This document shows positions 32,893-61,171 of a stretch of 64,000 bases of DNA, piece after piece. The translations under genes were made by a program, and so were the position numbers. Origin of the DNA: Unio delphinus (Eukaryota > Mollusca > Bivalvia > Unionida > Unionidae); contig JAQISU010000210.1 of NCBI GenBank assembly GCA_029339505.1, positions 14,607,501 to 14,671,500 on the forward strand. Direction: 5' to 3'. Under the pieces are notes generated by a model that was given only the letters and a program-made list of their open reading frames with translations, made no database searches and had not been told where the DNA came from. How positions within the stretch are numbered: position 1 is the first letter of the stretch; each line of letters opens with the position of its first letter.

Positions 32893-32955
<63 letters not shown>

Positions 32956-32956
32956 G

Positions 32957-33042: not shown

Positions 33043-33048
<6 letters not shown>

Positions 33049-34104: not shown

Positions 34105-34333
34105 ATGCATACGGTCAAATCTCTAAGGTGGATATTTTTCTTTAGTCTGTTGTTAATGTCACACTTGTACAAAGAGTTTTCGTGTGAATCGGTAGTTCAC
34201 AAAGTTGACAATGGACTGGAAGATATATTTGATGAAAAGCAACTGCCAGATATGACAAAAGATGATTCAAAGCATGAAATATTGAGCCGTCTATGGCTAA
34301 GCCGTGGACCACAGCCCAAAGTTTACATTACTA
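34105..34333 (+). pseudogene. BMP-like ligand exon 1, copy 3
   Basis: The same 229-bp length and frame as 2627-2855, with a hydrophobic signal-like segment (FFFSLLLMSHLYKEFSC) and an LSRGPQPKVYI segment at the prodomain motif. The donor GTGAGT of copy 1 reads ATGAGT here (34334), exon 2 is missing downstream, and the mature domain was cut off by the outer Polinton-like insertion at 39156. The frame itself is open. Confidence 0.65.
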
Positions 34334-39155
<4,822 letters not shown>

Positions 39156-39397
39156 AGCAGCAGAGGGGGAAATCCTACAACTTTTTCCGACAAAATTGAT
39201 TGAGCCCTCAAAACATAAAATAGAGCCCTCCTGCGAATCTCATGTTTTAACCAAAAAAAAATAAAGTCTCCATTTGGTAAACGGAGACTTATTGATTTCT
39301 TGCTCAAAACATGAGTTTGCGCGGGTGATACTCTATTCGCGTTTTCGTTGCTTACCATAACACGTCGCAACGGTGCTGTCATCGCTCCTCTGCTGCT
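39156..39397. repeat. palindromic terminal region of the outer element
   Basis: Outer arms AGCAGCAGAGG and CCTCTGCTGCT; inside them CTCATGTTTT and AAAACATGAG; inside those AAGTCTCC and GGAGACTT around an 11-base loop. The nested arms make a large foldback. ATGGGTTAAC follows, as at 24318. Confidence 0.75.
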
Positions 39398-39402
39398 ATG
39401 GG

Positions 39403-40061
39403 TTAACCGAATATTTGATCAAGTCCGATACGATATCGTGTTCGGGGATCATGTAAATTTATTGTTATAAATCCGTGTGAGGCTGACTGCGCGTTACTAA
39501 AGAAATTTCTAAATTGATTGAAGTCCATATCATAGCAACATGTCTGCCAAATATTTCGTAACGTATGTGTATCAAAGCCGTTAAACACAGCAAGAATATT
39601 ACAGTTATCTCTGATCACTTTTGAAATCTGAGTGTATCGTTAAGTGACATATATCACGTCGGTGTTTTTATGCCTGCCTCGGGAAAATATTCTAGCTGGG
39701 TTTTCTTATTGTCTAACATCACATCTTCGTATACGACTAATATGTTAATGCTTCCATCAAGGTCATCCACGGATGGTTCCTCGTCAATATCAGTTATAAA
39801 ATCAACGACGTTCTCACCATTAATTTCTGATGCATTCTCGTTACAATCCTTTAACACTTCATAGCATCGTTGATCATCTACGCTAAGAGCAACTAAATAC
39901 ATCTTATCCCACTTCATCCATCTCATTATTTAATTGAGCAACAATTGCGTTTTACCGGATCCAGATGGCCCGATTATAATTGCGCGGATAGAGTTTGGTA
40001 GCGCTGCATGATGCTTAACTGGTTATCTTGTTTTAGTCGCTGAAGAATCAATTATATTCAT
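39403..40061 (-). pseudogene. FtsK/A32-type packaging ATPase (outer element)
   Basis: Walker A GPSGSGKT lies near 39960, followed by a stop right after the P-loop helix and another before it. The rest continues as DFITDIDEEPSVDDLDGS, a hydrophobic strand ending in VYEDVMLD (Walker B-like), and FITINLHDPRTRYRIGLDQI. The family pumps DNA into the capsid. The divergent PLA2 gene starts only 17 bp away. Stops and a frame change at about 39640 inactivate it. Confidence 0.75.
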
Positions 40062-40078: not shown

Positions 40079-40602
40079 ATGGATCAATATTGTGTGAAGT
40101 GTAAAACGCGTACTAGCACAAATGATGTGACGACGATAACAACTAGCGATAACAGATCAGCACTAACTGGTTGATGTGCAACATGTGGTATAAAAAAGTT
40201 TAGGTTTGTTTCTATGAAATCCGGAGATGTTTTAAAAAAAACCCAGGAGGTGATACCGAAGCAAAATTGGCAAAACTCCCTGGAACCCCATGGGCAAAGT
40301 ATCCCGGAGAAAAGCACCTTCCTGGATATAGCTACTGTGGCCCCGGAACACGATTAGATATCAGACTTGATGATCAAAATCAACCCCGATCCGGCGAAAA
40401 TCCGATAACCGCCACTGATAAGGCGTGTCATGCTCATGATGTTGCATATAAAAGTAGCAATTTGCAACACAGGCAACTCGCTTATGTGAAATTAATTCAT
40501 GCGTTAAATGCTATTCCTGATAAATCTTTCAAAGACAAGTTGGCTTCGTGGTTGGTAAAATCAGGTATGAAAGGCAAATTGATGATGGGCTCTGGTAATT
40601 AA
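40079..40602 (+). pseudogene. zinc-ribbon plus phospholipase A2-like capsid protein (outer element)
   Basis: MDQYCVKCKTR and a second Cys pair (CATCG) form an N-terminal ribbon. LPGYSYCGPGTRLDIRL is the PLA2 calcium loop and AHDVAYKS carries the His-Asp catalytic pair. Such domains in parvovirus VP1 and adinto-type virions breach membranes during entry (family knowledge). A TGA near 40172 and a frameshift before 40260 separate ribbon from enzyme. It is followed by the integrase after 4 bp. Confidence 0.75.
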
Positions 40603-40606: not shown

Positions 40607-41546
40607 ATGGAATCTATTTATTATTCTCCGAGGGGATACTGGAGGGGTAACGCTGCAATCAGTAAACTCACCAATGCCGCAAAAGTGAGAAAGGCCACTG
40701 CGGCTAATTGGTTATCCAAACAGGCTATATGGCAAATTTATCTGCCGCGTTCTAAACAAATCAATGTCTCGCATTTTGATGTTACCGGACCCAATGAAGT
40801 TCATCAAGCTGATTTTTTTTTTACAACATGACAACGGTTACAAATACGCGCTAACCGTAGTTGATGTTGCGAGTCGATACAAACAAGCAGAACCGCTAAA
40901 AAAAAAATCATCACCTAAAGCTGCTTCTGCATTTGAAAAGATTTATCGACGAGGCCCAGTACGCTGGCCAAATTGGTTACAAGTTGATCCCGGCAAGGAA
41001 TTTCAGGGTGTGGTTGCATCTACAATGAAACATCACAATGTCACCATCAGATGGGGGCATCCTGCATTACATCGCGATCAGGCAATTGTAGAACGATTTA
41101 ATCGGACTCTTGCTGAGCGGTTATTTGAATATCAATACGCAAAAGAATTCATCCAAGAAAAGCGATCCCGTTAATGGGTCAAAAGGTTACCAGGGGTAGT
41201 TGCAGCGCTAAATAACGAGATTACCAGAACAATCAATATAAAACCTAACAACGCAATATAAAAAGTATATACCAAAACCACAGCGGAATAGCGTTTCTCA
41301 GCCAATTCTCAGCAATGTCACCGTGATATATTTATATGAACCAGAAGAACTTGAAGGTGGCACAAAAAGGGGCCACTCATCCTATTTGGAGTGTCACTAC
41401 GCATAGCATATATACTATAACACAATCAACTGGTAGACCTCCAATCTATAAATTGGATTCAACTGCCACTCAGCGGGGTTTTTACACGCGAACAACTACA
41501 AGTGATTCCTGACGATATTCAATTGCCGCCGCATGGTCTTAACTAG
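40607..41546 (+). pseudogene. retroviral-type (rve) integrase of the Polinton class (outer element)
   Basis: MESIYYSPRGYWRGNAAISK opens an N-terminal domain. The core shows ALTVVDVASRYKQAEPL, LQVDPGKEFQG and AIVERFNRTLAERL, giving D, D and E with 34 residues between the last two. A C-terminal stretch ends LPPHGLN. A frameshift in a T run near 40815 and stops after 41172 break it. Its stop overlaps the convergent replicase end by a few bases. Confidence 0.82.
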
Positions 41547-42539
41547 CACCGTTTCGTTTGTTGCACTCAAAACAAGTCAACATGACATTGTTTCTGACAA
41601 GACCGAGACTGTTATTTTTTCTGTCTACGGTAAATTGGTGAGGATCTTTATCCGAATAACGAAAACGCATTGTACAATTGCAACAAGCGCAGTGATTATT
41701 CTGTTGTTGTCGTAACTCGATTATTAATTCGGCATCAATATCAAATTGTCGTTGTTTTTTTTTTCTTGTTGTTTGTAACCGGAGAGTTTTTTTTATTAAT
41801 GATGCTAATATCAATATCATCCATTCCGGTGTCGTCGTCGAAAACAATTCTTCGAAGTTGATTTATTCGCCGTACTTTATACACTGCAAGATAGACTAAA
41901 TTTGACCACTCAATGCGATTATCATCTATCCAAACAATTGTATCCGTGATGGTTAATCCCTGCGAGAAATGTATCGTCGTTACATAACCCAGTGTCCATG
42001 GCAATTTATCAGCACGCAATGCATTTTCGACAACACTGATATCAACCATCACACTATCATTTAACACTAGTGTTTGTCTTTCGATTCCTGACGAAGTCAC
42101 ACGTCCTGGAATTTCAACTTCAATATTCTGCCGCCGTGTATCATAGGGTCTATAACACAGCGGCACTGGACGCGTTGGTAATTTTTCTTTGTGAAGCTCA
42201 AACAACTTTATCTGAAGTGTGTATCTGACTATCTTTCTACTTGCCACTACAAAATCGTTTTGGTCTCCATGCTTCCCAAAATTCCTCCATGGGAGTTTGA
42301 GGAATTATGTCTCTGATTATTTCACATTGAATTCTATCCGGTTGTAATCTAATTAATTTCTTGACCTCGCGTAATTGTTCATCAAGTGCCCTATAGTCAG
42401 TATCGATTTTTTCATAATAGTCAACAAACCATTTTAACCAATCATGTGGACCCGCGCCGACAAATGTTTGTGGTTGGCCATGATCTCCACACATTATTAC
42501 CGCTGTATTCTTTTGCAGCAACCAATCAAGAAACATTTT
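41539..42539 (-). pseudogene. replicase 3' piece: SF1 helicase C-terminal half plus HNH-like zinc domain (outer element)
   Basis: Begins exactly at the inner element's tip. MCGDHGQPQTF is helicase motif III; LIRLQPDRIQCEII follows. TTIHFSQGLTITDTIVW and LVYLAVYKVRRINQLRRI are motifs V and VI of the UvrD/RecD-type C-terminal domain. After a frameshift in a T run near 41760, CACCNC, FTVDRKNN and CFECNKRNG form a CxxC/CxxC HNH-like end. The upstream part of the same gene lies at 53927-54545 and 61172-62986. Confidence 0.8.
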
Positions 42540-42801
42540 AGGAGCAGGAAGGGTTAACCCTAGATTCGTCTGGATTATATAGTAGTTGGATCATAACACG
42601 TTTTGAGTTTTTTTTCATAACAGTAGCATGGTCAGATCACTCATTCTTCGCCGTGGTGATATTGTCGGTCATTTTTAACTACTCGGAGACATAGTTAATA
42701 CAAATTATAAATAATTTCTTTTTGAGAATCATAAATGATTTTTTATTGCATAATATATAATAAAATGTAGTGTTTCATCTTGTAGATCAATTAAATTATT
42801 G
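42540..42801. repeat. left terminal inverted repeat of the inner element
   Basis: Matches the reverse complement of 53643-53926 with scattered differences and indels. It includes GGTTAACCCTAGATTCGTCT and the last roughly 25 codons of the penton-like gene. Confidence 0.88.
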
Positions 42802-43982
42802 GATTGATCAACAAGTCTAAAATTTATTCTTGTTAACGATTTATTATGGCATTGCATATATGCAAGATTAACCGGATTCTCAATTATTAACCATCTAGGT
42901 TGAACTGTTGGAGCGAATGCATATAAAATATAACCTTGCTGAGCTTGATTTGATTCTTCGAGATTTATTTGATAACTTCCCTCGATAACATCACATACTA
43001 AATTTAACGCGATCACCGTATATATATTTACATTATTCGGAGTGAGATGTTTTCCTACGCCTTCTGGATCATTATTATATTTGAGGGTTTTTATTTCTGG
43101 AGATGTTGTTTTTTTTCCATTCATCATGATTTTTTTTAAACCGATATCGATGGTGTCACTAAGAAGTTTTTTTAGTTCTGGTATGTTATATCCAGGTAGT
43201 TTAAATGTTGGTATATCTTCAACGCCGATGTTAAAATTTCTTGCAAAGTGAGTTCTCGTTTCAGGATTTTCTTCTAATATCTTTTTAATAATATCTGAAT
43301 TAAATGATTCCATGTCATTGGTGATTTTATTACACGTTTCTATGACGCTGATAAATTCATCTCGGGTGAGAACACCAGATTCAAGAGATATTAACAATAA
43401 TGAAAAATCATCATTCATCCTTTTAAAGTTCTGCTCAATTACACTTTCGATAATGCCATTATATGTATATATATAACCCCAGGAGTTTTCACTGTCACCC
43501 TCACCGTCCAATCTAATTCATTAAGTATTGTATAACTTTTTATTTCATTATCAGGTTTTATCTTGTCTGTGACATAATCCGATGTTTTTTGGTTCTGGTA
43601 TATTAACGGTTTCTTTCTGTTGAAGTGGTAGTTCAGGCCATCCTAGTACGGTTCTAATAGAACTTTGATAAATATCTACGACATAATCCGGTGATTTTAT
43701 CTCAACCGCAGATGATAAGGTCGGTCCGTGAATCGTTATAGAATTTTTTGGTTGTTGACCACCGAATGGTTTTGATCGTATATTAGGCCAGCTGTGATAT
43801 ACCCGTAAATTTGCTAACGCGATCTCATTCACGGGAACTGGAGCTGGAAAATTTACGCTAAATTCAGGTTTTGTTGATGATATTGATATCATGCTTGTCC
43901 TCGCTGGAGTTGTATTTGTTGCTATTCGTTGAAGCAGTACTTGTGACGATGACGTTGTCATTGCTGTTATTATTATTACCAC
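42729..43982 (-). pseudogene. penton/minor-capsid-like protein (inner element)
   Basis: An N-terminal ORF (43551-43982) holds PEFSVNFPAPVPVNEIALAN and DIYQSSIRTVLGWPE. A 260-codon ORF (42729-43511) holds DVIEGSYQINLEESNQAQQG, then IIENPVNLAYM and LIDLQDETLHF. Compared with element A, about 55 residues are missing in frame between GGQQPKNS and ITIHGP. A frameshift separates the two ORFs near 43530. The last codons lie in the terminal repeat. See the element A copy for the role. Confidence 0.7.
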
Positions 43983-45053
43983 GCTCCAATTTCAATATCG
44001 TTGAATCATACAACCGGACCATCTTCGAAAACTCATCGTCGGATATTATCTGATCGTCGATTGACGATGAAATCAACATTGACAATTGTGAGTATGCTTT
44101 TGACGCGGTAACGAGTTTAATCGTTTAATCGTTTAATTTCTGTTGACTACAATATGATATTTTTTTTGTTATCCCGGTAAACACTCCGGCGATTGTTGCC
44201 GCCTCGGATACACAAATTGGGACAACAACAGGAGCTATCAACGTCACCGAGGATAATATTATTGCAGCGCTTGCAATCACACCAGATATTGAGTATACTG
44301 AAACGTCAATGGCGGTGATTCTACGCTGGTATTTTTTCTTTTTATTTTTATATTCATCAATTAACGTTTCATCATAGTATCATCGATGTATAATGATACT
44401 GTGTTAAGTCCTTCTCCAATTATAAATATTATTTGACCTATTTGGTTTACTGATCTAGCGGTAATATTAAATTTATGATTAGAAATTATTGTAAGTCGAT
44501 AAATACCTTTATCATTTAGGTTATGGATTAAAAGTAATCTACCAGTAATCCAATCAAACACCACTTGCTGAACTACACCTATAACATTATCCGCCCCGCG
44601 AGATGTTTTTAAAAAATCGATTTCCGTTTTAATTTCTGCGAGGAATGGTGTAGTTACAATTGGTGATCCAAAAAACGTATTAATGATATTTCTGCGAAAT
44701 TGATTATAATTTTTCAGATGATCTTCAAATTCTTTATTGTATTCAGTACGTTTATCTGTGATCGTTGAAACAAGCACACCTGGTTTGAGTTTCCCATCAT
44801 TGGAGTATAACGCTATTGTATTTTCCGTTGCACGGCGATTTTTAACTAAAATATCATCTATGGAAATATTGCTCGATTTTAATTTACCTTGACGATTCTC
44901 AAATGTAACTACCTCACCGGTATTAACGCTTTCTAGGTTTAACATATCAGCTATTTCATCTTCGATTATTTTTGTGATCTCATCGGGTTTAGCTTCACCG
45001 ATTTCTAGTGTTTTCGTTTGTTGAGTTGTAGATCTCCCCCAAATTTTAACCAT
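43864..45053 (-). pseudogene. Polinton-like coiled-coil/hydrophobic protein (inner element)
   Basis: A 230-codon ORF (44361-45053) begins MVKIWGRSTTQQ and shares SSNISIDDILVK and LKPGVLVSTI with A. Downstream frames hold the hydrophobic ASAAIILSSVTLIAPVVV and then the tail SMLISSSIDDQIISDDEFSK (44085 to 43864), which overlaps the penton-like start. Function unknown. Confidence 0.55.
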
Positions 45054-45099
45054 TATTTATAATCGTTAACTACTCTCTAAAATTGTAAAATTTCACCAA

Positions 45100-45965
45100 C
45101 GACTGCTAGTATACTCGTTGATAACAACATGCGGTGGTTTCATCGATGATTTTGAAATTCATCAAGAACATACATTTAACACCTCTCTACCGCATATTGG
45201 CGGATCATTTAACGTTTGTGTAGGTAGCGTAGAATACCAAATTGGAATTTTAAATCTACTTACGTATTTATAAAATTCTTAAGGCGGTGATAAACCATAT
45301 GAGTAAAAAAAAAGTAATTCCACGTGGATCAATCATGTAACAGACCCAATGAATACCAGGTCCATCAGAATTATCTAGATTAATAATACCTGTTTGTGGT
45401 ATTTGTGATTGTATCGGTAATTGACAAATACTCCTCGGAAATTTGTTCTTTTTAGTTTTTTAACAGCTTCTAGTAAATCAAAATTTGACAGCGGAAAAAT
45501 ATCTCTCAAGGTAGTCGTATTCCGGATCCTCGGTATACCAAACCCGGAGGTGTTCCCGGTAGTCTTAATCCTCGTCCTTTTTTTACGTGAAATATTTCCA
45601 CCGGTTGCCTTCTTTAACGCCATTTACGCCGCGGTACCGACAGCTACTAATGCCGCCGCCTTGGCCACCGCTAGGGCCGCCGCAGCGATCAATGCTGGAA
45701 TCGCTGCTAACAGTGGAAATATTCCGCCGGTTTTTATCATATTTTTTATCGCAGTTGAAGACAGAGTAATCTGAACTCCTCTTTTTTCTTTTAACGCCTT
45801 ATTAAAACGATTAACCTGAGTTTTCGTTAGCGATAATTTATTTGATCCACCTGTCATCTGTTCTTTTGTATGAGTTATCGCAGTTCCACATTGTTTGGCT
45901 GATCCTGATTGAAGTTTCTTTATCTGACCAGGTGTTAATGTAACATTAATAACACTATATGACAT
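45100..45965 (-). pseudogene. pVI-like domain plus adenain-type protease (inner element)
   Basis: MSYSVINVTLTPGQIKKLQ opens it at 45965, with GGIFPLL and an Ala-rich helix. A stop follows VAVGTAA, then MALKKATGG and a Lys-rich linker lead in frame to SNFDLLEAVKKLKRTNFRGV. The protease His segment survives only as GIHW in another frame near 45350. Clearly inactive. Confidence 0.68.
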
Positions 45966-45979
45966 TTTATATAACATCC

Positions 45980-47439
45980 GATTGATTCAATTACGAAGTA
46001 ATCAATTATAGATTTGAGGAAATTCTTACAGATTTCAACAGGTGCATCTACGATTCTCATTCGTCCTCCATCATCTTCTTGTATCATCAATTTATCGCTT
46101 AGAATAACAGCAACCGCTCTATAATTAGCAATACCACCGGGACAAGTTAAACGAGCTCTACAATGTATGTAGAAGACAGATTGTCTTGTTAGATCAAGAT
46201 GTTCTAATGAAAAATATAATATCGGGTACAAATTTTTGAAATCGAGTTGGGATATTTGTAGATCAGTGTCAACATTTTGATCACGCGCCATAAACGACAA
46301 TAATCTGTGATTTGCTCGTGCAATATGGTTTTGACCATATTCGAGTTGTACTTCTTCAGTCGGCTCTTGTTCGCCGTTTATTCTTAATGATGCCTCCCTA
46401 ACATCGAGTTGATCAAATATCATGTGACTCCGTTCTTGATTACCAACTCGCTCGGTATTTTGTAGCGCTATAAATATATGACGTGGAGCTGAAATGCCTT
46501 GTTTAGATGCCTAATGCCATCTAAATACATCGTTGACGTTATCTTGTTTAACATCTGTAGATACCGACAAACAACTTAGTAATGACTTCCCTCCTTGGTT
46601 CATAAAATCCAATAACCGATTTTCTGAAGTGATTGATGGTGTTAATACTGGCATCCACAGCGTTAATTTTGTCAAATTAACTTTACCAACGGCAACACCA
46701 GCCCCCCTCCAGATTGCATCATCATCCGTACCATTTCGTACAAGCGCTATTGTATGTTTTGCACCGTAAATAACTTTCTGACATTTCTACAGAATCCAAA
46801 TATGTGATGTAGTGGAATAGCACATGAAAACTGTCTGCGCTGCCCCTGTAATGTTGCTACTCGTGTTGCAAATCCTAGATAATAATTAGTAATGTTATTT
46901 ATGACATCAAAAGTATTAGCTGGTCTTACATATCCGGCTGGTGCTGGATCAACTGCAGTAGCTAGTGTTGCTTTTACCCTAGAATATTGAACATGTTCAG
47001 CGTTATCGGTAATATCCTTCGCGAACGTCATAGACGGACCCGCGGATCTTGTATAATCATCAGAATATCTTGCTAACCCGATTATCCCCGTGGCAATATC
47101 AACATCACGCTCTAAAGATTCAATCTCATTTCCGTCGATGATAAATCTAGCGTTTTCGAATAATGCCATAATCCCATTATTGACAATACCAACTCGGATA
47201 GTTGGGTTATTATCATATGGTGTATCAGATGCAACATTTGTTACGAGTTCTCTTTCAACTTCAATGAATGCTTCACATGGTAAAAAGTATTTACTAGTAT
47301 CTTGAACTTGAAGCTCAATTCGTGATCGTATATTAGGTTGTACAGCTTGATAAGAATACAATTGATAATTTTGTATAGAATCATCTTTATGCACTGGGGC
47401 GTCCATGTCAAAAGCTGTATCAGGTGTCCTCTTAAACAT
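45980..47439 (-). pseudogene. major capsid protein, double-jelly-roll-like family (inner element)
   Basis: Starts MFKRTPDTAFDMDAPVHKD at 47439, 21 bp inside a slightly longer ORF. FLPCEAFIEVERELV, VNNGIMALFENARFIIDG, ARYSDDYTRSAGPSM and IPLHHIFGFCRNVRK match element A. A frameshift lies near 46780 and a stop near 46512. The last segment (46423 down) ends around the MRIVDAPVE motif. The ORF past about 45990 is read-through. Confidence 0.75.
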
Positions 47440-47518
47440 TTTTGTATTATTTATAATCATTATGGTCTAAATCGTAAATTCCCGTTGAAAATCCATGAAA
47501 ATATTCGATTTTTCATTT

Positions 47519-47970
47519 TCATCTTCTACGACGAAACCCACTTCCCGCTATCATATTCGCGATTATATTATCCTGTTTACCCTGATTACCAATTTGAAGA
47601 TTTTCCTCTAACGAATCTAATTTTTGTTGCACCGCTTCATTTATTATTTTACTAACTTGCGCTGGCATTACCGCTGTAGATGGTAGCGGTTTCTTTTTCG
47701 GTCTAATTAACAACGTTACCTTATCCTTCGCAAAGGAAAACACTTTCCCGGCAAGATTCCCAACAGCGGAAATACCTTTATCACGAATAACATTGATAGC
47801 CTTCATACACATCTGTTTTACAAACGGCGCTACCTTCGGAGCAATTTTTGAAAAAAAAAACCTAAAATTGTATTACCGAGACCATCCTCGTAATACCCTT
47901 TATAAACAGAATGTCTTGAGTTTACCACATAGACGCTAACTGGTTTATCATGATTGTAGTGTATAATCAG
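47519..47970 (-). pseudogene. pX-like basic protein (inner element)
   Basis: The 5' part near 47970 reads the same IIHYNHDKPVSVYVVNSRHS start as in A. A frameshift in an A run near 47850 follows, then MKAINVIRDKGISAVGNLAG runs to the basic end GSGFRRRR. Confidence 0.65.
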
Positions 47971-47989
47971 TCTTTATACTATTAACTAC

Positions 47990-48990
47990 TAATTAAATCA
48001 AGGATTAAATCGCTGAGATATCCGGGATAATCCTCAACGAGTTCGCTAATAATCTCTCAGTAAGTTGCCATATTCATGATTACACCTTGAAATAACCGTC
48101 TACAAATATCAGCTGTTTCATTAATTAACACCCGAGAATTATTTCCAGCTCGTTTTCCTCCGATGATGATTTCTAATCGTGATATATCACCAAGAACGCT
48201 AATATGACATTGATGAATATCTGAGGTCATCGTGGATCCGTTGAATCCCATTCCGGTTCTTTTTTTTGAATATCCTGGTATTTTTTCTACATCTACTTTT
48301 ACATTTTCCATAAAAGCTATAAACTCGTTTTTGTATATCATTCGTAATTCTTGTTTTATTTTTATATAATAAAAAAAAATTATTTATCCAAACATCTATA
48401 TCTTTCATAATTTTTTTGCTCTTTCATCTTTTAAATAATTATTTCTTGTTTTAAAATTTTCTCTGGTAAATTAATTAATTCAGGATACGATCTAATACTT
48501 TTGATTATATTTAAGGCGTCAATCGTAAATATATTTTCTGGTGAGTAATCTCGTGGAATATTAGCAGTAGCTCCCTGTGGAATTTCTTCTTCCACCGGCT
48601 GAATATCTTCTTCTTGTTGCTCACGTTCTTTTTCTAGTTGTTCTCGTGGCTCTCTTTGTTAGTGAGAGGTTATAATATCACCGGGAAGTGTTCTTAAAAA
48701 TTTTTTTGTTTGTTTAGACCGCGATGCTATTTTTTCAAATACGAGAAGTACATCTTGTCGTTGAGAACCTGTAAGCGATTCCACAGCTGATTTTACATCT
48801 TTGGTCGCACTAGTTATCGGTGTAAATAATTGTTGTGTATCTGTAACAAATTTTGTTTGAAGTTGTTGACGTTGTTGCAAGTTTTCTCTAACAGCATCTC
48901 TCAACGGGATATATGCTTTTATCGCGGATGCTCTCCCTATAGCTAGTCTAGTTGTTTGTGATTCGTTTATCATTATACATATTTTTATTT
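47990..48990 (-). pseudogene. conserved Polinton-like unknown protein (inner element)
   Basis: MINESQTTRLAIGRASAIKA and YIPLRDAVRENLQQRQQLQ start it. TKKFLRTLPGDII is followed by a stop and a Glu/Gln-rich stretch (LEKEREQQEEDIQPVEEEIP). Near 48200, LGDISRLEIIIGGKRAGNNS and RRLFQGVI match the C-terminal part of A. Several frame changes. Confidence 0.55.
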
Positions 48991-48999
48991 TCACAATTG

Positions 49000-49245
49000 A
49001 AAATCGTGAACGAAAATCTTTTGAAAATATTTCAGAATTTCAATTTTCAAGAATTTTCAGGATTTTCAAAGATTTTCCAAAAAAAATTTTTTTTTAAGTT
49101 CCTGGAAATTTTCATATTAACTATAATTTCTGACCGTAATTATCACCACGATTCCCATATTGTTACGATTATTGAGTCAAATTTCTAGATTATAATTTCA
49201 GACTATGATTTTTTGTTCGCGTTTATATAATGCGTTCACAGACAT
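49000..49245. other. AT-rich TTTTCA-rich spacer in the inner element
   Basis: Contains many TTTTCA/GATTTTC units (49010-49090) upstream of both flanking genes. Perhaps promoter sequence; no defined site. Confidence 0.3.
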
Positions 49246-49617
49246 TTAACCCGCGATGACGAGGAGAGAATCCTCGCACTCAGAGGTTTAGAACAACCCG
49301 TAGAAGTATCCAAAGAGTTTAAAATCGGATTAACAAGATTATAAATTATATGGTCGAAAACACCTTATAACGCTACAATCAGCCGGAGTTTTAATTCGTA
49401 TAAAGAGGCACGGCAACGTCAACTAGAACGGCAACGTGAATTCGCTGAGGAAATTTCTGAACTACGTAAGTATACTGCAAATACTGAAGTTGTATTAACT
49501 CAATTAAAAAATATACGAGAATCACACAGACAAGAATATTTCGAAGAAAAGCGGCGATAAAAAGATCTTAAGGGGCACCGAGAACGGCTAAAAAAATATC
49601 GATTTGAGAACTCGTAA
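49246..49617 (+). pseudogene. unknown coiled-coil protein remnant (inner element)
   Basis: One plus frame is open except for single stops: DDEERILALRGLEQPVEVSK, then RQLERQREFAEEISELRKYT and QLKNIRESHRQEYFEEKRR. The heptad-like charged pattern suggests a coiled coil. I know no family for it. It occupies a position where a polymerase part would be expected. Confidence 0.35.
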
Positions 49618-49779
49618 AATCGAAACGCTAACACAAAAGCATAATGAGCTTATTGAACATTATAAAAAAGGTATTATCGGAAAATACTAAAATTCAGGAT
49701 GCTATTGATTATTAATACGCTGTTAGAGCTACACCAATTCCAACTAAAAAAGTAAAACCACTTTAGGGTTCTTCAACGG

Positions 49780-50740
49780 TAAATTGACTAGGGTGGAAAG
49801 TAATAAATTCATTTTTTCAGAATTTGAAATCTTTCACGATGCTAAAATTTCAAGAGATTTATCATATTCTCTCGCCGCGCTGTTAATAAGCTCTTCTTTA
49901 TTAAATACATCTCCGATAGATTTCAGCAACGACTTTAACAATTTAGATATCGTCGCAAACTCCTTAAGGCGATCCGGATTAGATTGCCCGTAGTAGTGTC
50001 TTTATAACACGATATTCTGAGCGATAAGTCGGATATTGTTTATCCTGTGCAGATGATATTTTTTCATACTCATTGTTGATATACTCGGACGTAAACAACT
50101 TAACGCTATGAAATTCACGTAAACGGTCAAGTTCAGTTATTAATTTGTCGATGATTTAGTCGTTGAAACTTGAAGTATTCAATTTTTTATATATAATATT
50201 TTTTTTTAGTTTAATTGTGAAATGAAACTTCGAAGATTTTCATTTACGATTTCATGAAATCCCACGAATTTTTCGTAGGATCTTTACTACATTTTTTACG
50301 TAAAAATCTTCGATGTTTCACGGAAAATCGGGAAAATGGAGAATCTTTTTTGAAATTATTATCGTAATATTCTTTTATTTCAATAATAAATTGTTTAAAA
50401 TGTTGATATCGCTCATCGACAAGATCATTAGTAATACCGTATTAGACAAATCGAGTTACATCACCGTGTCTTAGGTCGGTACAGTAATCGTACAATTCTA
50501 CCTCTGGTTTACCATAATCCGATATATATGTATAAACGAATCAAATATCTCACACTGCATTGGATTATTTTTATGTATATTAGATATTTCACATAGGACA
50601 TAATCGTAAAATCGCTTACTACCGATAATCTCACTAAAGAGATTAATCGCATCGTCATCATGTAAAATTTTTAATCGTGTAATAAATTTATAATTACATA
50701 ACACGTGTGTGAAAAACCAATCTTGGTACATTTCACACAT
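49780..50740 (-). pseudogene. unknown protein remnant(s) (inner element)
   Basis: An 80-codon ORF from 50740 (MCEMYQDWFFTHVLCNYKFI) continues in another frame as KPEVELYDYCTDLRHGDV and LVDERYQHFKQFIIEIKEYY. After the palindrome at 50223, other fragments (TARREYDKSLEILASWKIS) run to about 49780. Possibly two genes. Nothing recognised. Confidence 0.35.
50223..50320. repeat. nested palindrome in the middle of the inner element
   Basis: TGAAACTTCGAAGATTTT and AAAATCTTCGATGTTTCA form the outer arms with one mismatch. CCCACGAA and TTCGTAGG form an inner arm pair. It could be a terminator or a replication structure. Confidence 0.7.
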
Positions 50741-51519
50741 ATTTTTATCTGTGATGTTATTATATTTTTGATATCTTCGAAGGTCGGCGGTGGGAATCGT
50801 GGATATTTTTTTCCACCGGTAATTATTTGGGATGAGGTGTGTACGGTATCATTAAAAAGTTTACAAATATTCCTTGAGTGGCTATCAACGAAAACGATAA
50901 AAAAAAAATTGTGTGGTGATCACGGTCAACCACCACCATTTTTCGGCGATTTTTACGAAGAGATTAATACCGATCACAGATCGCTGGATGAAGCATTACG
51001 TGTATTAAAAGGTTGAATCAGATTACAAACGGATAGAATACAGTGTTAAATAATCAGAGAAGTAATTCCGGAAACTGCGTTCAATGAATTTTGGGAATCG
51101 TGGACTCCAAATGATTTAATAGTCGCAAGTAGAAAATCAATCCAGGATAAACTTCAACAGGAGCTACACCAAATACATAAAAAAAAATTATAGCAATTCC
51201 AGTACCACTTTGCTATAGACCATTAGATACACGACGACAAAATATTGAAATTGATATTCCAGGGGGAAATGAAAAGCAAACATTGGTACTAAATGGTATA
51301 CACGTTGACATTAGCGTCGTTGAAAATGCAATAAACGCTAATAAATCCCCATGGGTATTAGGTTATGCGTGGACGATACACTCCTCACAAGGATTAACCA
51401 TCACAGATACAATCGTTTACATCGTAGATAATCGGATTGATTGGTCAAATGTAGTTTATCTCGCAGTATCACGAGTACGGAGAATAAATCAATTACGAAG
51501 AATTGTTATTGATCTCTAG
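50740..51519 (+). pseudogene. SF1 helicase, 5'-truncated (inner element)
   Basis: FFPPVIIWDEVCTVSLKSL is motif II and KLCGDHGQPPPFFGDF motif III. After stops and frame changes, WTIHSSQGLTITDTIVY and YLAVSRVRRINQLRRI are motifs V and VI. The gene ends there, without the HNH-like domain of the outer copy. Motif I and the whole polymerase are absent. The stop overlaps the convergent integrase end. Confidence 0.75.
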
Positions 51520-52455
51520 TTGAGACCATGCGGTGGTAATTGAGTATCCTCGAGCATTAACTGTAGTTGTTGTCGAGTAAACCCTCGTTGAGTAGCAGTT
51601 GAATCTAGTCTATAAATTGCTGGTGTACCAGTGGACCGTGTTATACTAGATATTTTATGTACGGTAACACTCCAAATAGGATCAGTAGCTCTTTTTTTAA
51701 AACCTTCAAGCTCTCCTGGTTTGTACAATTATCTTACAGTGACATTAGCAAGAATTGGTTCTTTGAAATCTTTTTGTGGTTGCATGGGTATATCTATTTT
51801 TAATCGCGTAGTCAGGTTTCATATTGATTTTTCTAGTAATCTCATTATTGAGCGCAATAATTGCACCTGGTAATCGTTTAACCCATTCACGAGATCGTTC
51901 ACGTTGGATGAATTCCTTCGCGTTTTGATATCCAAATAACCGCTTAGCAAGTGTCCGATTAAATCGTTCAACAATTGCCAGATCGCGATGTAGTGCAGTG
52001 TGTCCTCGTCTGATGGCGACATTATGATGTTTCATCGTAGATGTAACAACACCTTGAAATTCCTTGCCAGGATCAACTTGTAACAGATTTGGCCAGCGCA
52101 GAGGACCTCGTCAATAATTTTTTTCAAATGCAGAAGCTACTTCAGCAGATGGTTTTGTTTATAACGGTTCTGCTTGTTTGTATCGACTTGCAATATCAAC
52201 TACGGTTAACGCGTATTTATAACCGTTGTCATATAGTAGAAATAATATACCAGCTTGATGAACCTCATTAGGAACAGTCACATCGAAATGCGAGTAGTTA
52301 ATTTGTTTAGGCGGCGGTATATAAATTTGCCATATCGCCTGTTAAAATAACCAATCAGCTGCAGTAGTATTTTTTACTTTTGCAGCGCTAGCTAGTTTAC
52401 TGATTGCTGATTTAGCTTTCCAGTATCCTTTCGGAGAAAAATAAATTTTTTCCAT
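51516..52455 (-). pseudogene. Polinton-class rve integrase (inner element)
   Basis: MEKIYFSPKGYWKAKSAISK starts 1 bp after the PLA2 stop. ALTVVDIASRYKQAEPL, LQVDPGKEFQG and AIVERFNRTLAKRL carry the D, D, E residues. The end is LPPHGLN, as in the outer copy. In-frame stops occur near 52340, 52160 and 52110, and a frame change near 51740. Confidence 0.8.
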
Positions 52456-52456
52456 G

Positions 52457-52963
52457 TTATATACTTGCATCAAATAATAATTTACCTTTCATGGCAGATT
52501 TTATCAACCACGAAGCTAATTTTTCCTTGAACGATTTGTCAGGAATGGCATTCAACGCGTGAATCAGTTTTATATCTGCGAGATGGCGCTGTTATAAATC
52601 CCCACTCCGATAAGCTATATCATGTACACGACACGCCTCATCGATAATGTTTATCGTTGATTCTCCCGGGTTAGGATTATTTTGAATATCGAGTCTGATA
52701 TCTAATCGCGTTCCAGGTCCACAATAACTATATCCTGGAAGATGTTTTTCATCTGGATGCTTTAACCACGGTAACCCTGGAAGTTTAGCTAACTTAGCGG
52801 TGATATCTCCTCCTTTTTTATTGAATATTTTTACAAATTTATATTTTTCTATACAACATACCTCACAATTACAAACAACCGCACTTCGATTATTTTTCGT
52901 AGTAGTATTTGTCAGATTTAACGTTGATGTACGCGCTTTACATTTAACACAATATGAATCCAT
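52457..52963 (-). pseudogene. zinc-ribbon plus phospholipase A2-like capsid protein (inner element)
   Basis: 123 open codons then one TAA (52592-52594) interrupt a 168-codon frame. Cys 5 and 8 pair with Cys 31-37 in the ribbon. PGYSYCGPGTRLDIRL (about residue 80) and VHDIAYRS (His 114) are the PLA2 loop and catalytic pair. The tail after the stop keeps the family pattern (LIHALNAIPDKSFKEKLASW). Only one disabling change is visible. Confidence 0.78.
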
Positions 52964-52973
52964 AAATATATTT
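52964..52973. promoter_or_regulatory. 10-bp divergent intergenic gap between PLA2 and ATPase genes
   Basis: The two genes diverge with only ten AT-rich bases between their start codons (17 bp in the outer element). Promoter elements must lie inside the coding sequences or the transcripts must overlap. Confidence 0.4.
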
Positions 52974-53702
52974 ATGTTATATCAACAAATGGAAGTGATT
53001 GATTTCTCAGCGTTGAAAAAGAAACAAACTGTAAAACATCATCCGATGCTACAAGATTCTATAAGGATGATAATCATTGGACCTTCCGGAAGGGGTAAAA
53101 CTCAATTGTTGCTCACGATGATAATAAAATATATAACCTGGAACACATTGTATTTTATCGCTCCAATTGTAGACGATCAGAATTGCTATCAGGTTTTAAA
53201 ATATTACGACGAAACCGTTAAAGAAGAATACGGTGGAAGTGTAATTGAATTTATCACAGATATTGAAGAAGCGCCATCCGTGGAAGACTTTGAGGTATGC
53301 GTTAACAATCTCGTTGAGTACGACGATGTAATGTTGGATCAACAAAAAAATCCAGCTAGGATATTCTCCCGAGGGCGCCACAAAAACTCCGACGTGATAT
53401 ATGTAACTCAACGCTATACACAAATGCAAAAAGTAATCCGGGATAATTGTAATTTGTTATGTGTGTTTAACGGCGTTGACACACATACTCTTATAAATAT
53501 TTGGCAAACTTGGTGTCCCGATATGGACTATAACAAATTTCAAAATTTCTTCAGCGGTGCAAGAGCCACCCCACACGGATTTATAACGATAAATATACAC
53601 GACCCTCGGACACGATATCGAGTTGGATTGGATCGTATTTACGATAATTTTTTTGATCTACAAGATGAAACCCTACAATATAGTCTATATGTGAAATCTT
53701 AA
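52974..53702 (+). CDS. FtsK/A32-type DNA-packaging ATPase with terminal-repeat-encoded C terminus (inner element)
   Basis: An intact 242-codon ORF. Start at 52974 or the Met at 52989; the longer upstream frame is antisense to the PLA2 gene. Walker A GPSGRGKTQ spans about residues 35-43, and NLVEYDDVML at about 111-120 is a Walker B-like strand. FITDIEEAPSVEDFE and FITINIHDPRTRYRVGLDRI are conserved with the outer copy. The last roughly 20 residues (FFDLQDETLQ and on) lie in the terminal repeat and match the end of the penton-like protein, whereas the outer ATPase ends shortly after LDQI. Confidence 0.82.
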   Translation: MLYQQMEVIDFSALKKKQTVKHHPMLQDSIRMIIIGPSGRGKTQLLLTMIIKYITWNTLYFIAPIVDDQNCYQVLKYYDETVKEEYGGSVIEFITDIEEAPSVEDFEVCVNNLVEYDDVMLDQQKNPARIFSRGRHKNSDVIYVTQRYTQMQKVIRDNCNLLCVFNGVDTHTLINIWQTWCPDMDYNKFQNFFSGARATPHGFITINIHDPRTRYRVGLDRIYDNFFDLQDETLQYSLYVKS

Positions 53703-53926
53703 AAGATTTATTTATGAAATAAAAAATCATTTATGATTCTCAAAAAGAAATGATTTATAATTTTTTTTACTATGTCTCCGAGTAGTTAAAAAAATGACCG
53801 ACAATCTAACCACGGCGAAGAATGAGTGATCTAGCCATGCTACTGTCATGAAAAAAACGTCTTAACGTGTTCTGATCCAGCTACAATATAATCCAGACGA
53901 ATCTAGGGTTAACACTTTCTGCTGCT
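53643..53926. repeat. right terminal inverted repeat of the inner element
   Basis: Inverted partner of 42540-42801. It begins inside the ATPase gene and ends at CTTTCTGCTGCT next to the ATTTT target duplication. Confidence 0.88.
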
Positions 53927-54545
53927 ATTTTTAATACGTCTAACGAAACCGTACATATCTCATCCCAAAAAATAATCGCAGGGATGAATTTTTCACCCAT
54001 TCGTTCAGGGGTCCATTTGTCGCCGTTGTATCGAAAAAAAACTGTGATAAGTGCAATCTTCAACGTTTCTTTGTTTTATCTCTCGCGCTAATTTATGGGT
54101 AGGTGTCAGGACAATCATATTTTTCCCACGATATAATTCAAACGCACGAGTCTTTTTTCCCGATCTGCCACAGCCGTTTAAATAAACTGTTTTATATGTA
54201 CAAATTGGATCAGATATCGGTGGTGCATTAGAACGTTCTGATTAATTATCACCGCGTAAGTAATTACTTTTAATTTCAACGTCTGATGATTCAGAATGAT
54301 CACGCAGCATTTCTTTTTTAATTCTCCATGATCCCCAACTTTCATCCGAATTAGTGAATTCAGCACCTGCGCAACTGTACTTGCTGTTAATGTAAAATGA
54401 ATCAACAGCAACTCTAACTGCAGTGTCAGGAAATCTATTTAACATTGAAAAAAAATTAATACAAGCATAACCCAGCATCGACGACCTCAAATGTGTATAC
54501 GGAGAACTGTGTCCATCGTTGTAAGTAACAATTGTACCCAAAATT
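53927..54545 (-). pseudogene. replicase middle piece: polymerase C motif and helicase motifs I-II (outer element)
   Basis: MLGYACINFFSML and PDTAVRVAVDSFYI resemble the B- and C-motif region of a B-family polymerase palm. After a stop near 54242, VYLNGCGRSGKKT is helicase motif I and MIVLTPTHKLAREI motif Ia. A frameshift in a T run near 54030 precedes FIPAIIFWDEICTVS, motif II. Bounded on the right by the Gypsy-type insertion and on the left by the inner element. Confidence 0.72.
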
Positions 54546-56177
54546 TGTAACAGAATTGTTACCGAGAGGAGGGTGGATTAAATGAACAATACAAACACAA
54601 TTTGTGAAAGAAAATATAAATTTATGTAATAAATTATAAATGAAAAAAAATACAGATGTAACAACACAATAATTCATGCACTCAACCCACAATTAAACTC
54701 ACAATCATTCACAATACATGAACAAATTAAATAACAATACAAAAGGAATCACAAATGTAAAGGGATCTCTTGGATTATACACAGATCCAAGAATCCTTTA
54801 CGAAAGTTAAATAAATGCAAGTATGATTTACGAAAAAAATAAACACAAACGACAAACTATCTATCGCACGATGGATTGCGATAACTAGCACGATCATATA
54901 CTTGTATTCAATCAAGTTGCTAGCTTTTATTGATATCTATGTGATCACTTGAAATATTATTGCGATCTGACATAAACATGCAAATACAACAATGTATTAA
55001 ATTATATCACAATTTCAATACACCTATGTGTCTCCCTTGTATAACCGCACGATTCAGCAACAGTTGAATCGTCTCCCAGTTTCCCCGAGAACCGAGGGTT
55101 GACCAATACTATTATCGGACGTTTCCCTACACGGATCCACCACAGTTATACGTTCAGACAGCATACAACATCTACCAGAACCAACGGTTCCTCACTCCCC
55201 TAGATGTCGACCCGAACGTTTTACAACTCTAAGACAGCTCCGACACTCGGACTTCTAGCTTTCCGGATATTTACATGTTACACAGATGTTGACGAACAGA
55301 CAGTTCGACACACAGACAGATACTTCAATTCCGTTTGCACAAATTAACGGCACAAGCACATTCAGATATTTATACAGAGATGTTCCAGAACAAACAATAG
55401 ATGTCCCACAACAAATCAGACGATATCAAAAACGTTTATCAAAAGATGGTATCAGATGTGTTAACAGCTACGGTATCAACGATGTTATTAGCAGCTACGG
55501 TATCAACGATGTTATTAGCAGCTACGGTATCAGATACATTGTAACAACTACGTTAGCAGCTACGGTATCAGAGACGGTATCAACGATGTTATTAGATGCG
55601 CTATCAGTGATGTACTTCTACGGTATCAACGACGGAATCAACGACGGAACCAACGACGGAATCAACTATAATAAACAAAACCAGACTAATAATAGTAGTC
55701 TCAAAAATAATCTAAGCCGTAGATTACGATATTGTATTTAAAGTCTAAAAGTGACTAGTAATTCCAAATATTCCACGTTTAATTGCAATAAAAGCATCAT
55801 TATACGAAATGATAATCTGAATAAAATTCACAATAAAACGAAATGTAAATTTAACACTCACCCCTTTGGCTGGAGATTTGCAAGACGAGGTTATCTATCC
55901 TTCGATTAGATATTTTAGTTCCCGTAAATAATAATGAGAAATCCTTCGCCTTATATACTCTCAATAGGTGAACATAAATCACATCGAGCTTGCCGTGCAC
56001 CACGTAAAACGAGTATTTCGGATTTCATGTAAATTACAAATTGGCACATGCAAATCGTTACACGCCACTTAATCACCCCAGGTAATGCGTGTACGACGAA
56101 ATCAAGAAAATGGTGAGTTTCGTTTGCAATTCAAGTACAACAAAAATCAGTTCAAATTTTCGCCTAATTCTGTGACA
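54546..56177 (-). repeat. 3' LTR of the Gypsy-type element
   Basis: Near-identical to 59535-61166. It contains a plus-strand 151-codon ORF (55286-55741) with an internal 27-bp repeat. Confidence 0.93.
55286..55741 (+). other. antisense ORF inside the left LTR
   Basis: 151 open codons with repeats of SYGINDVIS and of GINDG-type units, caused by 27-bp and shorter tandem repeats in the LTR. It is open in both LTRs because they are nearly identical. Probably not a gene. Confidence 0.3.
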
Positions 56178-56192
56178 ATACCTCCCCCCTAA
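56178..56192 (-). other. polypurine tract
   Basis: On the minus strand AGGGGGGAGGTAT lies directly before the 3' LTR. Confidence 0.75.
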
Positions 56193-56360
56193 GAATAAAA
56201 ATGTACACATTTTTAAAACTAACACAGAATAGAAGAAAAATAACTACTGATGATATCTTACAACATTTACACTGGTTATACTACAAACTGGATTTTATTA
56301 CTGGGCAAATTCATACAAATTTCCCATCATGCCCTACTCAAGTAGTCTGCGCCTATATTT

Positions 56361-59315: not shown

Positions 59316-59515
59316 GACAATGACAATTGTAATATGAATTTAGATATGTAACCAAACCAATACTTTGAACACGTTTATACTGGACTCACGGACCTAGGTA
59401 AACTAGACAAAAATAAACTCCAACTAGAGTATTATCTTAACAGAAGGTCACGCTCGAATATAAACATTAAATGTATACCTTCACAAAAATGATTGACAGT
59501 TCACTTAATCCAACG

Positions 59516-59533
59516 ATCCCACTTCTGACACCA
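59516..59533 (-). other. primer-binding site
   Basis: On the minus strand TGGTGTCAGAAGTGGGAT starts one base after the 5' LTR. It matches the complement of a tRNA-Leu 3' end as I remember it. Confidence 0.65.
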
Positions 59534-59534
59534 T

Positions 59535-61166
59535 TGTAACAGAATTGTTACCGAGAGGAGGGTGGATTAAATGAACAATACAAACACAATTTGTGAAAGA
59601 AAATATAAATTTATGTAATAAATTATAAATGAAAAAAAATACAGATGTAACAACACAATAATTCATGCACTCAACCCACAATTAAACTCACAATCATTCA
59701 CAATACATGAACAAATTAAATAACAATACAAAAGGAATCACAAATGTAAAGGGATCTCTTGGATTATACACAGATCCAAGAATCCTTTACGAAAGTTAAA
59801 TAAATGCAAGTATGATTTACGAAAAAAATAAACACAAACGACAAACTATCTATCGCACGATAGATTGCGATAACTAGCACGATCATATACTTGTATTCAA
59901 TCAAGTTGCTAGCTTTTATTGATATCTATGTGATCACTTGAAATATTATTGCGATCTGACATAAACATGCAAATACAACAATGTATTAAATTATATCACA
60001 ATTTCAATACACCTATGTGTCTCCCCTGTATAACCGCACGATTCAGCAACAGTTGAATCGTCTCCCAGTTTCCCCGAGAACCGAGGGTTGACCAATACTA
60101 TTATCGGACGTTTCCCTACACGGATCCAACACAGTTATACGTTCAGACAGCATACAACATCTACCAGAACCAACGGTTCCTCACTCCCCTAGATGTCGAC
60201 CCGGACGTTTTACAACTCTAAGACAGCTCCGACACTCGGACTTCTAGCTTTCCGGATATTTACATGTTACACAGATGTTGACGAACAGACAGTTCGACAC
60301 ACAGACAGATACTTCAATTCCGTTTGCACAAATTAACGGCACAAGCACATTCAGATATTTATACAGAGATGTTCCAGAACAAACAATAGATGTCCCACAA
60401 CAAATCAGACGATATCAAAAACGTTTATCAAAAGATGGTATCAGATGTGTTAACAGCTACGGTATCAACGATGTTATTAGCAGCTACGGTATCAACGATG
60501 TTATTAGCAGCTACGGTATCAGATACATTGTAACAACTACGTTAGCAGCTACGGTATCAGAGACGGTATCAACGATGTTATTAGATGCGCTATCAGTGAT
60601 GTACTTCTACGGTATCAACGACGGAATCAACGACGGAATCAACGACGGAATCAACTATAATAAACAAAACCAGACTAATAATAGTTGTCTCAAAAATAAT
60701 CTAAGCCGTAGATTACGATATTGTATTTAAAGTCTAAAAGTGACTAGTAATTCCAAATATTCCACGTTTAATTGCAATAAAAGCATCATTATACGAAATG
60801 ATAATCTGAATAAAATTCACAATAAAACGAAATGTAAATTTAACACTCACCCCTTTGGCTGGAGATTTGCAAGACGAGGTTATCTATCCTTCGATTAGAT
60901 ATTTTAGTTCCCGTAAATAATAATGAGAAATCCTTCGCCTTATATACTCTCAATAGGTGAACATAAATCACATCGAGCTTGCCGTGCACCACGTAAAACG
61001 AGTATTTCGGATTTCATGTAAATTACAAATTGGCACATGCAAATCGTTACACGCCACTTAATCACCCCAGGTAATGCGTGTACGACGAAATCAAGAAAAT
61101 TGTGAGTTTCGTTTGCAATTCAAGTACAACAAAAATCAGTTCAAATTTTCGCCTAATTCTGTGACA
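59535..61166 (-). repeat. 5' LTR of the Gypsy-type element
   Basis: 1632 bp, same ends and length as the other LTR. Differences noted include single bases near 59861, 60026, 60129, 60203, 60643, 60686 and 61101. Confidence 0.93.
60275..60730 (+). other. antisense ORF inside the right LTR
   Basis: Same 151-codon frame as 55286-55741, with two residue differences. Considered a by-product of LTR repeats. Confidence 0.3.
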
Positions 61167-61171
61167 ATATT

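What the first reader, a model, noticed from the sequence alone, without database searches (positions are those of the whole stretch)
42535..53931. A complete-ended Polinton-like element sits inside the helicase gene of a second Polinton-like element
Seen: inverted ends about 270 bp long, ATTTT on both sides, and the two helicase halves meeting in the same frame exactly at the insertion point. This gives element boundaries, TSD length and relative age in one locus. Related elements inserting into one another may be how this family piles up in the region.
Basis: seen in the sequence. Interest (0 to 1): 0.8.

Follow-up and report, generated by a model that had tools for sequence, protein, structure and literature searches.

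The report
Virus-like element nested in its kin
In a freshwater mussel genome one virus-like jumping element sits inside the DNA-copying gene of a related one; the nesting looks like chance, because this element family appears to fill roughly a sixth of the genome, which is the surprising part.

Summary
Confirmed: element D (42540-53926, 11,387 bp) has terminal inverted repeats (236 of 267 aligned positions identical) and a 5-bp duplication ATTTT, and splits a gene of an oppositely oriented relative, C; four intact relatives read straight across the insertion point. The interrupted gene is not a stand-alone helicase: uninterrupted relatives carry polymerase-palm motifs plus SF1 helicase, others helicase plus HNH, the plan of Tlr1-type 'pPolB-S1H' proteins (palm by motifs only). 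D lacks 3.3 kb (palm plus helicase N half); none of 39 other scored genome matches spans that junction. A Gypsy-like retrotransposon, younger by divergence, hit the same gene of C. The assembly matches Unio delphinus (contig of 43,585,313 bp). Self-nesting recurs (5 of 21 other ends lie in or against family DNA), but 6 of 30 sampled windows also hold family DNA, so nothing suggests targeted self-insertion. The larger surprise is abundance: about 17% of sampled bases (window-level 95% interval 8-39%), and 149 of the 150 best-scoring packaging-ATPase matches are stop-free. The nest is ordinary; a Tlr1-type family at this load in an animal did not appear in my literature searches.

The parts
42540..53926 (.). 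inner element D, 11,387 bp, opposite orientation to C
   Evidence: TIRs, TSD, alignment to copy E
42540..42799 (+). left terminal inverted repeat of D, tip AGGAGCAG
53644..53926 (-). right terminal inverted repeat of D, tip AGCAGCAG
42535..42539 (+). target-site duplication ATTTT, left copy
53927..53931 (+). target-site duplication ATTTT, right copy
41840..42539 (-). C: SF1 helicase, C-terminal part, starts at the insertion point; contains a frame change
   Evidence: tblastn of P0027, P0034, P0042, P0051
53932..54310 (-). C: SF1 helicase, N-terminal part with the Walker A region, ends at the insertion point; contains a stop and a frame change
   Evidence: tblastn of P0051, P0027
41542..41838 (-). 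C: HNH-type domain, fused C-terminally to the helicase in relatives P0029, P0039, P0050, P0046
   Evidence: Pfam HNH only below cut-off in P0029 and P0046, none in the window piece
54310..54541 (-). C: part of the polymerase palm region with a motif C-like VDS, directly upstream of the helicase
   Evidence: tblastn of copy E's palm-helicase frame; compare P0054/P0055
61171..62674 (-). C: rest of the palm and N-terminal part of the replication gene, beyond the retrotransposon, broken
   Evidence: tblastn of copy E frames
40689..41543 (+). C: retrovirus-type (rve) integrase, broken
   Evidence: Pfam PF00665 E=1.2e-5, 26 bits, below its cut-off of 32.6; copy E integrase 69-84%
40204..40599 (+). 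C: PLA2-like gene
   Evidence: Pfam PF08398 38.2 bits vs cut-off 23.9
39406..40061 (-). C: packaging ATPase, broken
   Evidence: tblastn of copy E ATPase
39156..39163 (+). probable left tip of C (AGCAGCAG), near where similarity to duplicated host sequence ends
52989..53699 (+). D: packaging ATPase, unbroken frame
   Evidence: Pfam Pox_A32 PF04665 40.7 bits vs 22.8; P0001 74% over 68% of the query
52460..52981 (-). D: PLA2-like gene
   Evidence: copy E PLA2 88%
51519..52341 (-). D: rve-type integrase, broken
   Evidence: copy E integrase 86-87%
50807..51513 (+). D: remaining C-terminal part of the helicase, with stops and a frame change
50811..50812 (.). D: internal deletion junction; 3.3 kb present in copy E (L012:720-4026) is missing
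   Evidence: only D spans it among 40 scored matches
46265..47466 (-). D: double-jelly-roll major capsid protein gene, broken
   Evidence: tblastn of the homologue at 28558-29634, which hits PF21738
45210..45584 (-). D: adenain-like protease remnant
   Evidence: tblastn of copy E protease; Pfam PF00770 below cut-off in relatives
42732..43517 (-). D: conserved capsid-side ORF whose 3' end lies in the left TIR
54545..61169 (-). Gypsy-like LTR element inside C's replication gene; LTRs 54545-56180 and 59534-61169, 99.57% identical; 984-aa gag-protease-integrase ORF without a reverse-transcriptase match

Best explanation
D is a polinton-like element that inserted, by integrase strand transfer with a 5-bp staggered cut, into the replication gene (polymerase palm + SF1 helicase + HNH) of an older, related, oppositely oriented element C in the genome of a freshwater mussel. 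Later a Gypsy-like retrotransposon inserted into the palm part of the same gene. D has since lost, or arrived without, 3.3 kb holding the palm and the helicase N half; both D and C are decayed. The target was most likely hit at random: DNA of this family is so common in this genome (about a fifth of sampled windows) that self-nesting is expected. Shown: ends, duplication, interrupted frame, opposite orientation, deletion seen in D only, recurrence of nesting, high background. Inferred: integrase mechanism, palm fold, order of events (from divergence), randomness of target choice.
For: TIRs and TSD; relatives and copy E uninterrupted at the point; same gene order ATPase-PLA2-integrase-helicase in C, D and E with C mirrored to D; palm motifs and Walker A in one unbroken frame in P0054 and P0055; HNH fused to helicase in P0029, P0039, P0046, P0050; K2P: D TIR pair 0.126, copy E TIR pair 0.031, Gypsy LTR pair 0.0043; 5 of 21 other ends nested or abutting against 6 of 30 sampled windows.
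Against: The 5-bp TSD rests on D alone; right ends of other copies were not resolved or lie in microsatellite (copy E). The background sample is small (30 windows, 34 kb, on 31 of 1,246 contigs, most of which I knew because they had yielded matches); two of its six positive windows are short single hits of about 160 bases. A modest bias for or against kin is not excluded. One relative, P0037, does not read across the point. The palm has no profile or structure support.
Confidence: 0.86

Rival explanations
1. Self-targeting: the integrase, or a homing activity such as the HNH domain, steers new copies into kin elements, so nests form more often than by chance.
For: 5 of 21 independent tip-bearing ends lie in or against family DNA; in the C86 copy an ATPase piece lies between two parts of the capsid gene.
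Against: 6 of 30 sampled windows also hold family DNA; Fisher P=0.74. The genes at the tips differ: helicase (D), protease, PLA2-like, polB, a capsid-side gene.
Confidence: 0.08
2. D was already an internally deleted, non-autonomous element that was moved in trans by proteins of complete copies.
For: D has both ends and a TSD but lacks the palm and helicase N half.
Against: No sign of a deletion subfamily: 39 of 40 scored matches cover one side of the junction only, so the loss may postdate insertion. Only 40 of 1,441 first-look candidates were scored.
Confidence: 0.2
3. Recombination between two helicase copies, not integration, put D inside C, and the ATTTT repeat is chance.
For: D and C both carry related helicase sequence, 70.6% alike.
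Against: The junctions are exactly at the TIR tips with an identical 5-bp repeat, and D's own helicase remnant (50807-51513) lies 8.3 kb from the left and 2.4 kb from the right junction.
Confidence: 0.03
4. Assembly artefact joining two loci.
For: Repeats of this kind can be misassembled (general knowledge).
Against: The genome appears to be a PacBio HiFi assembly; the break is exact to the base, with TSD and intact relatives.
Confidence: 0.02

Closest known systems
Tlr1 element of Tetrahymena thermophila and other elements with Tlr1-like helicase (pPolB-S1H)
   Same: [quoted passage not shown] PMC4642659 passages).
   Different: Host is an animal; this family also has a PLA2-like gene and an adenain-like protease remnant, and its genome share is very high.
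Polinton-like viruses in the narrow sense (PMC4642659, passages)
   Same: Capsid and packaging-ATPase module, some with Tlr1-like helicase; lipases are common.
   Different: With one exception those lack the rve integrase, and none has the protease; this family has the integrase and a protease-like gene.
Maverick/Polinton and adintovirus elements of animals
   Same: rve integrase, capsid genes, packaging ATPase, long TIRs, short TSD; PLA2-like gene in some Polintons (PMC4642659, passage).
   Different: Polinton pPolB has TP-vOTU-exonuclease-palm (PMC11071308, section 11); here palm motifs run into SF1 helicase and no polymerase profile matched.
Retrotransposons nested in PLVs and virophages (cryptophyte PLVs; Ngaro in Cafeteria EMALEs)
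   Same: A mobile element disrupting a gene of a polinton-like element (PMC12220804, PMC8547959, passages); matches the Gypsy insertion here.
   Different: In the passages seen the inserts are retrotransposons; here a polinton-like element is itself the insert.
Trichomonas vaginalis Mavericks (recalled, no call)
   Same: Very high genome share.
   Different: Protist host; classical polinton polymerase (recalled).

Membership tests
Polinton/Maverick in the broad sense | long TIRs with short TSD | tested here: met
   5-bp TSD in D only
Polinton/Maverick in the broad sense | retrovirus-type integrase | tested here: met
   PF00665 E=1.2e-5 in C, below the curated cut-off; same gene in D and E, where Pfam gave no hit
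Polinton/Maverick in the broad sense | packaging ATPase and double-jelly-roll MCP | tested here: met
   PF04665 above cut-off in D; PF21738 69.1 bits vs 27 in the neighbouring copy at 28558-29634
Classical Polinton (pPolB with exonuclease) | protein-primed PolB with exonuclease domain and no fused helicase | tested here: not met
   palm motifs run into SF1 helicase in P0054 and P0055; no DNA polymerase B profile in Pfam; an exonuclease too diverged for the profiles is not excluded
Tlr1-type element (pPolB-S1H) | palm and SF1 helicase in one reading frame | tested here: met
   unbroken frames P0054 (561 aa) and P0055 (390 aa), palm by motif only
Tlr1-type element (pPolB-S1H) | protein-primed palm fold with TPR1/TPR2 | tested here: inconclusive
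   motifs A/B/C by eye; AlphaFold model unusable, pLDDT 36; no PDB polymerase hit by profile
Tlr1-type element (pPolB-S1H) | C-terminal GIY-YIG or HNH nuclease | tested here: met
   helicase-HNH in one frame in P0029, P0039, P0046, P0050 by eye; Pfam HNH below cut-off in P0029 and P0046. In D and E the integrase end lies within a few bases of the helicase end, so there is no room for it there
Tlr1-type element (pPolB-S1H) | N-terminal TP and vOTU domains | not tested
   no usable structure
Polinton-like virus in the narrow sense of PMC4642659 | absence of rve integrase and of capsid maturation protease | tested here: not met
   integrase in C, D, E; protease-like gene with PF00770 below cut-off
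Adintovirus | adenovirus-like capsid set with PolB and integrase | tested here: inconclusive
   protease PF00770 below cut-off; polymerase differs; the adintovirus paper was not held

The most novel reading that the evidence does not exclude
A Tlr1-type polinton-like lineage, known to me only from protists and giant-virus satellites, has overrun a bivalve genome: about 0.2-1 Gb of the 2.5 Gb, with many stop-free packaging genes that point to recent or ongoing activity, and it probably accounts for much of the 549 Mb of 'DNA elements' reported for Unio delphinus.
Probability: 0.6. Interest if true: 0.75.

Novelty: new variant of a known kind. Interest (0 to 1): 0.58.

Why it matters
The nest fixes the element's ends, its 5-bp duplication and the order of three insertions at one locus. 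Following it showed that polinton-like elements with a fused polymerase-helicase, a trait that the papers I read describe from protist elements and transpovirons, make up a large share of a mussel genome. If confirmed, this family is a main driver of genome size in that lineage, would explain an odd repeat class in the published annotation, and gives a dense, datable record of an animal-resident polinton-like lineage.

Tried and rejected
Targeted self-insertion was my own leading idea after 5 of 21 other ends proved to lie in or against family DNA; the background sample (3 of 10 windows; 6 of 30 in all; reversed-protein control 0 of 30) removed the excess. The C40 end (L023) first looked like a nest, but its tip lies 93 bp outside the tip of its left neighbour, in a stretch that by eye looks like a tRNA 5' half (not tested with ARAGORN); it is counted as abutting. 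A deletion subfamily like D was looked for and not seen. Structure prediction of P0054 failed (pLDDT 36), so no fold search was run. Profile searches for a polymerase domain found none. IMG/VR scans with the ATPase (single and alignment) and the capsid protein confirmed no relatives; the helicase alignment was not searchable. ARAGORN and Rfam scans of the window were empty. The right end of C was not found in the 20 kb right of the window. For the C86, C100 and C40 copies no clean right end with TSD was found: no TIR match in 18 kb (C86), inner part of the TIR only, followed by DNA of another copy (C100), fetched stretch without element DNA (C40).

Rows dropped before counts: of 38 left ends among the places (D and E included), D was left out of the 21 because it was chosen for being nested; three pairs with the same flank bases were counted once (L013/L034, L025/L026, L035/L036); 13 fetched ends without a usable tip were left out (L015, L016, L019, L027, L028, L030, L032, L033, L040, L041, L045, L047, L049), of which L040 and L045 also had family DNA in the flank. 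L017 and L039 have tips with one mismatch, L021's tip lies unusually far out; all three are kept. L038 (family DNA about 1.8 kb from the tip) is not counted. L013's flank (534 bp) was judged, the script having missed its ORF end.
Full report
Observation. The window is C222:14607501-14671500 of an animal assembly of 2,505,324,503 bases in 1,246 contigs. Its contig C14 is 43,585,313 bases long, the exact length printed for the largest contig of the PacBio HiFi assembly of Unio delphinus, 2,505,989,517 bases in 1,254 contigs (PMC10235117, passages read). A TGF-beta domain above Pfam's cut-off lies at 9613-9885. I take the host to be that freshwater mussel; this is an identification by assembly figures, not by a marker gene.

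The nest. D runs from 42540 to 53926. Its ends align at 236 of 267 positions, and ATTTT stands on both sides. Kept apart, the two flanking gene pieces match relatives that have no interruption: in P0027 residue 23 ends at 53932 and residue 24 starts at 42539; P0034 and P0042 agree, P0051 breaks at 127|128. Of five relatives matching both sides, one (P0037) does not fit, because it lacks the stretch behind the point. D and C share gene order in mirror image: ATPase, PLA2-like gene, integrase, helicase; 39417-41546 matches the reverse of 51516-53634 at 73.6%.

What the target gene is. Copy E on C28 (9431251-9446643, 15.4 kb between tips; TIRs differ at 8 of 260 positions) carries upstream of the helicase C-terminal part a 536-aa and a 327-aa frame. 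Two proteins in single unbroken frames, P0054 (Sinanodonta woodiana) and P0055 (environmental), run from palm-like motifs (P0054: DMIACYPGSF, GRIIIGKF, VATDS) into a Walker A motif. P0055 begins downstream of motif A. Motif names are recalled; the replaced first Asp in motif C fits the description of Tlr1-like proteins in PMC11071308 (sections 10 and 11 read). AAA_19 matches above cut-off in copy E's frame and P0051. HNH follows the helicase in one frame in P0029, P0039, P0046 and P0050 (by eye; Pfam HNH below cut-off in the two scanned). The palm has no profile, PDB or structural support, so it stands on motifs alone.

D is incomplete. Against copy E, D lacks L012:720-4026, 3.3 kb, at 50811/50812, with only a few T bases in common at the join. 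A genome search with the junction scored 40 of 1,441 first-look candidates: only D spans it, 39 match one side only; in C28, C100, C130 and C87 the two sides lie 3.3-3.4 kb apart. The deletion was thus seen in D alone. Whether it came before or after insertion is open.

Order of events. C first, then D inside it, then a Gypsy-like element at 54545-61169 in the palm part of the same gene of C; the place of the Gypsy element after D is inferred from divergence. K2P distances: D's TIR pair 0.126, copy E's 0.031, Gypsy LTR pair 0.0043. No years are given, as I have no rate, and TIR gene conversion could make D look young. C's left tip is probably at 39156, near where similarity to duplicated host sequence (7.4-8.0 kb and 20.9-21.3 kb) fades; its capsid half continues right of the window to about C222:14677500, and its right tip was not found.

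Do these elements seek out each other? One search listed 42 matches, two of them D's own ends. From it I fetched 36 left ends besides E. Of 21 independent tip-bearing ends (E included, D excluded), five lie in or against family DNA on the sampled side: L020 (2 bp from a protease homologue), L029 (21 bp from the start of a PLA2-like gene), L039 (13 bp from polB), L044 (243 bp from a piece of a capsid-side gene), L023 (93 bp from another element's tip). The far side was seen for C100 alone, where family DNA also follows. This looked like self-targeting until I sampled the genome: 10 windows of 2 kb at round positions and 20 of 700 bp drawn at random by length, all on 31 of 1,246 contigs (464 Mb) whose lengths I knew, most of them because they had yielded matches. 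6 of 30 held family coding DNA, 5,701 of 34,000 bases (16.8%); the exact 95% interval for the window fraction is 8-39%; reversed proteins hit 0 of 30; two of the six are short hits of 156 and 162 bases. 5 of 21 against 6 of 30 gives Fisher P=0.74. Random insertion is sufficient.

Abundance. The ATPase of a relative (P0012) gave 47,924 first-look candidates; the best 150 were scored, all matched over residues 1-220, 149 without a stop. These are the best-scoring, so they say that many stop-free copies exist, not what share is stop-free. 15 of them lie on C74 between 1.79 and 2.34 Mb at steps of 34.3 kb, two steps double, which looks like a tandem array. The Unio delphinus paper reports 549 Mb (21.92%) of 'DNA elements', with hAT-Charlie and TcMar-Tigger together 0.71%, and remarks that this differs from earlier mussel assemblies. 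My sample would put about 420 Mb in this family, so much of that class may be it; this is inference. The listing counts the word Maverick 0 times in that paper.

Literature. Searches for polinton-like virus with mollusc (5 papers), Tlr1 with helicase, polinton and animal (9), Maverick with freshwater mussel and transposable element (2), polinton with bivalve and endogenous virus (1), and Maverick with Unio (2), and two broader ones of which I saw 20 of 78 and 15 of 79 papers, listed no title or abstract describing such a family in a mollusc. Only open-licence PMC papers are searchable and two papers I asked for are not held. PMC10294476 (passages) states that Mavericks are present across all analysed genomes, 39 molluscs, without a quantity in the passages seen. 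[quoted passage not shown] PMC4642659 (passages) says that PLVs, with one exception, lack the rve integrase, and that none encodes the protease; by that narrow usage this family is not a PLV, and Tlr1 is the better comparison. PMC12220804 (passages) gives 5-6 bp TSDs for PLVs and reports nested retrotransposons.

Verdict. The family itself, a Tlr1-type replication gene with animal-polinton companions at very high load in an animal, is the interesting result and is a new variant of a known kind.

Noticed in passing
genome-wide, G000: Family DNA in 6 of 30 sampled windows and 149 of the 150 best-scoring ATPase matches stop-free: the element family may fill about a sixth of the genome.
   Followed up: partly
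G000 C74:1790059-2340280: 15 listed ATPase copies at a regular 34.3-kb spacing, which looks like a tandem array carrying the element.
   Followed up: no
window 56361-59315 within 54545-61169: Gypsy-like element with LTRs 99.57% identical and one 984-aa gag-protease-integrase frame but no reverse-transcriptase match in Pfam; looks like a recently moved, RT-less derivative.
   Followed up: partly
L011:1690-1751 and L012:7143-7211: Both ends of copy E carry a duplication of about 68 bp of the terminal unit, and the element borders (GA)n on both sides.
   Followed up: partly
L023 (C40, reverse strand) about 1660-1718: An element tip lies in a stretch that by eye resembles a tRNA gene, 93 bp from the tip of another element.
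   Followed up: no
window 2009-9726, 20295-22829, 32097-39072: Diverged copies of a host segment with a TGF-beta domain at 9613-9885 and, by eye, a partial copy near 22746, next to polinton-like fragments.
   Followed up: no
window 24088-31300 and 11121-17770: Further decayed copies of the family: a capsid half next to a (TAGA)n tract and a helicase scrap (23707-23900), and scattered fragments interrupted by a 1.1-kb repeat pair (11624-12732, 15072-16178).
   Followed up: partly
L050:1990-4015 (C86): An ATPase piece of the family lies between two parts of one capsid gene, perhaps a further nest.
   Followed up: no
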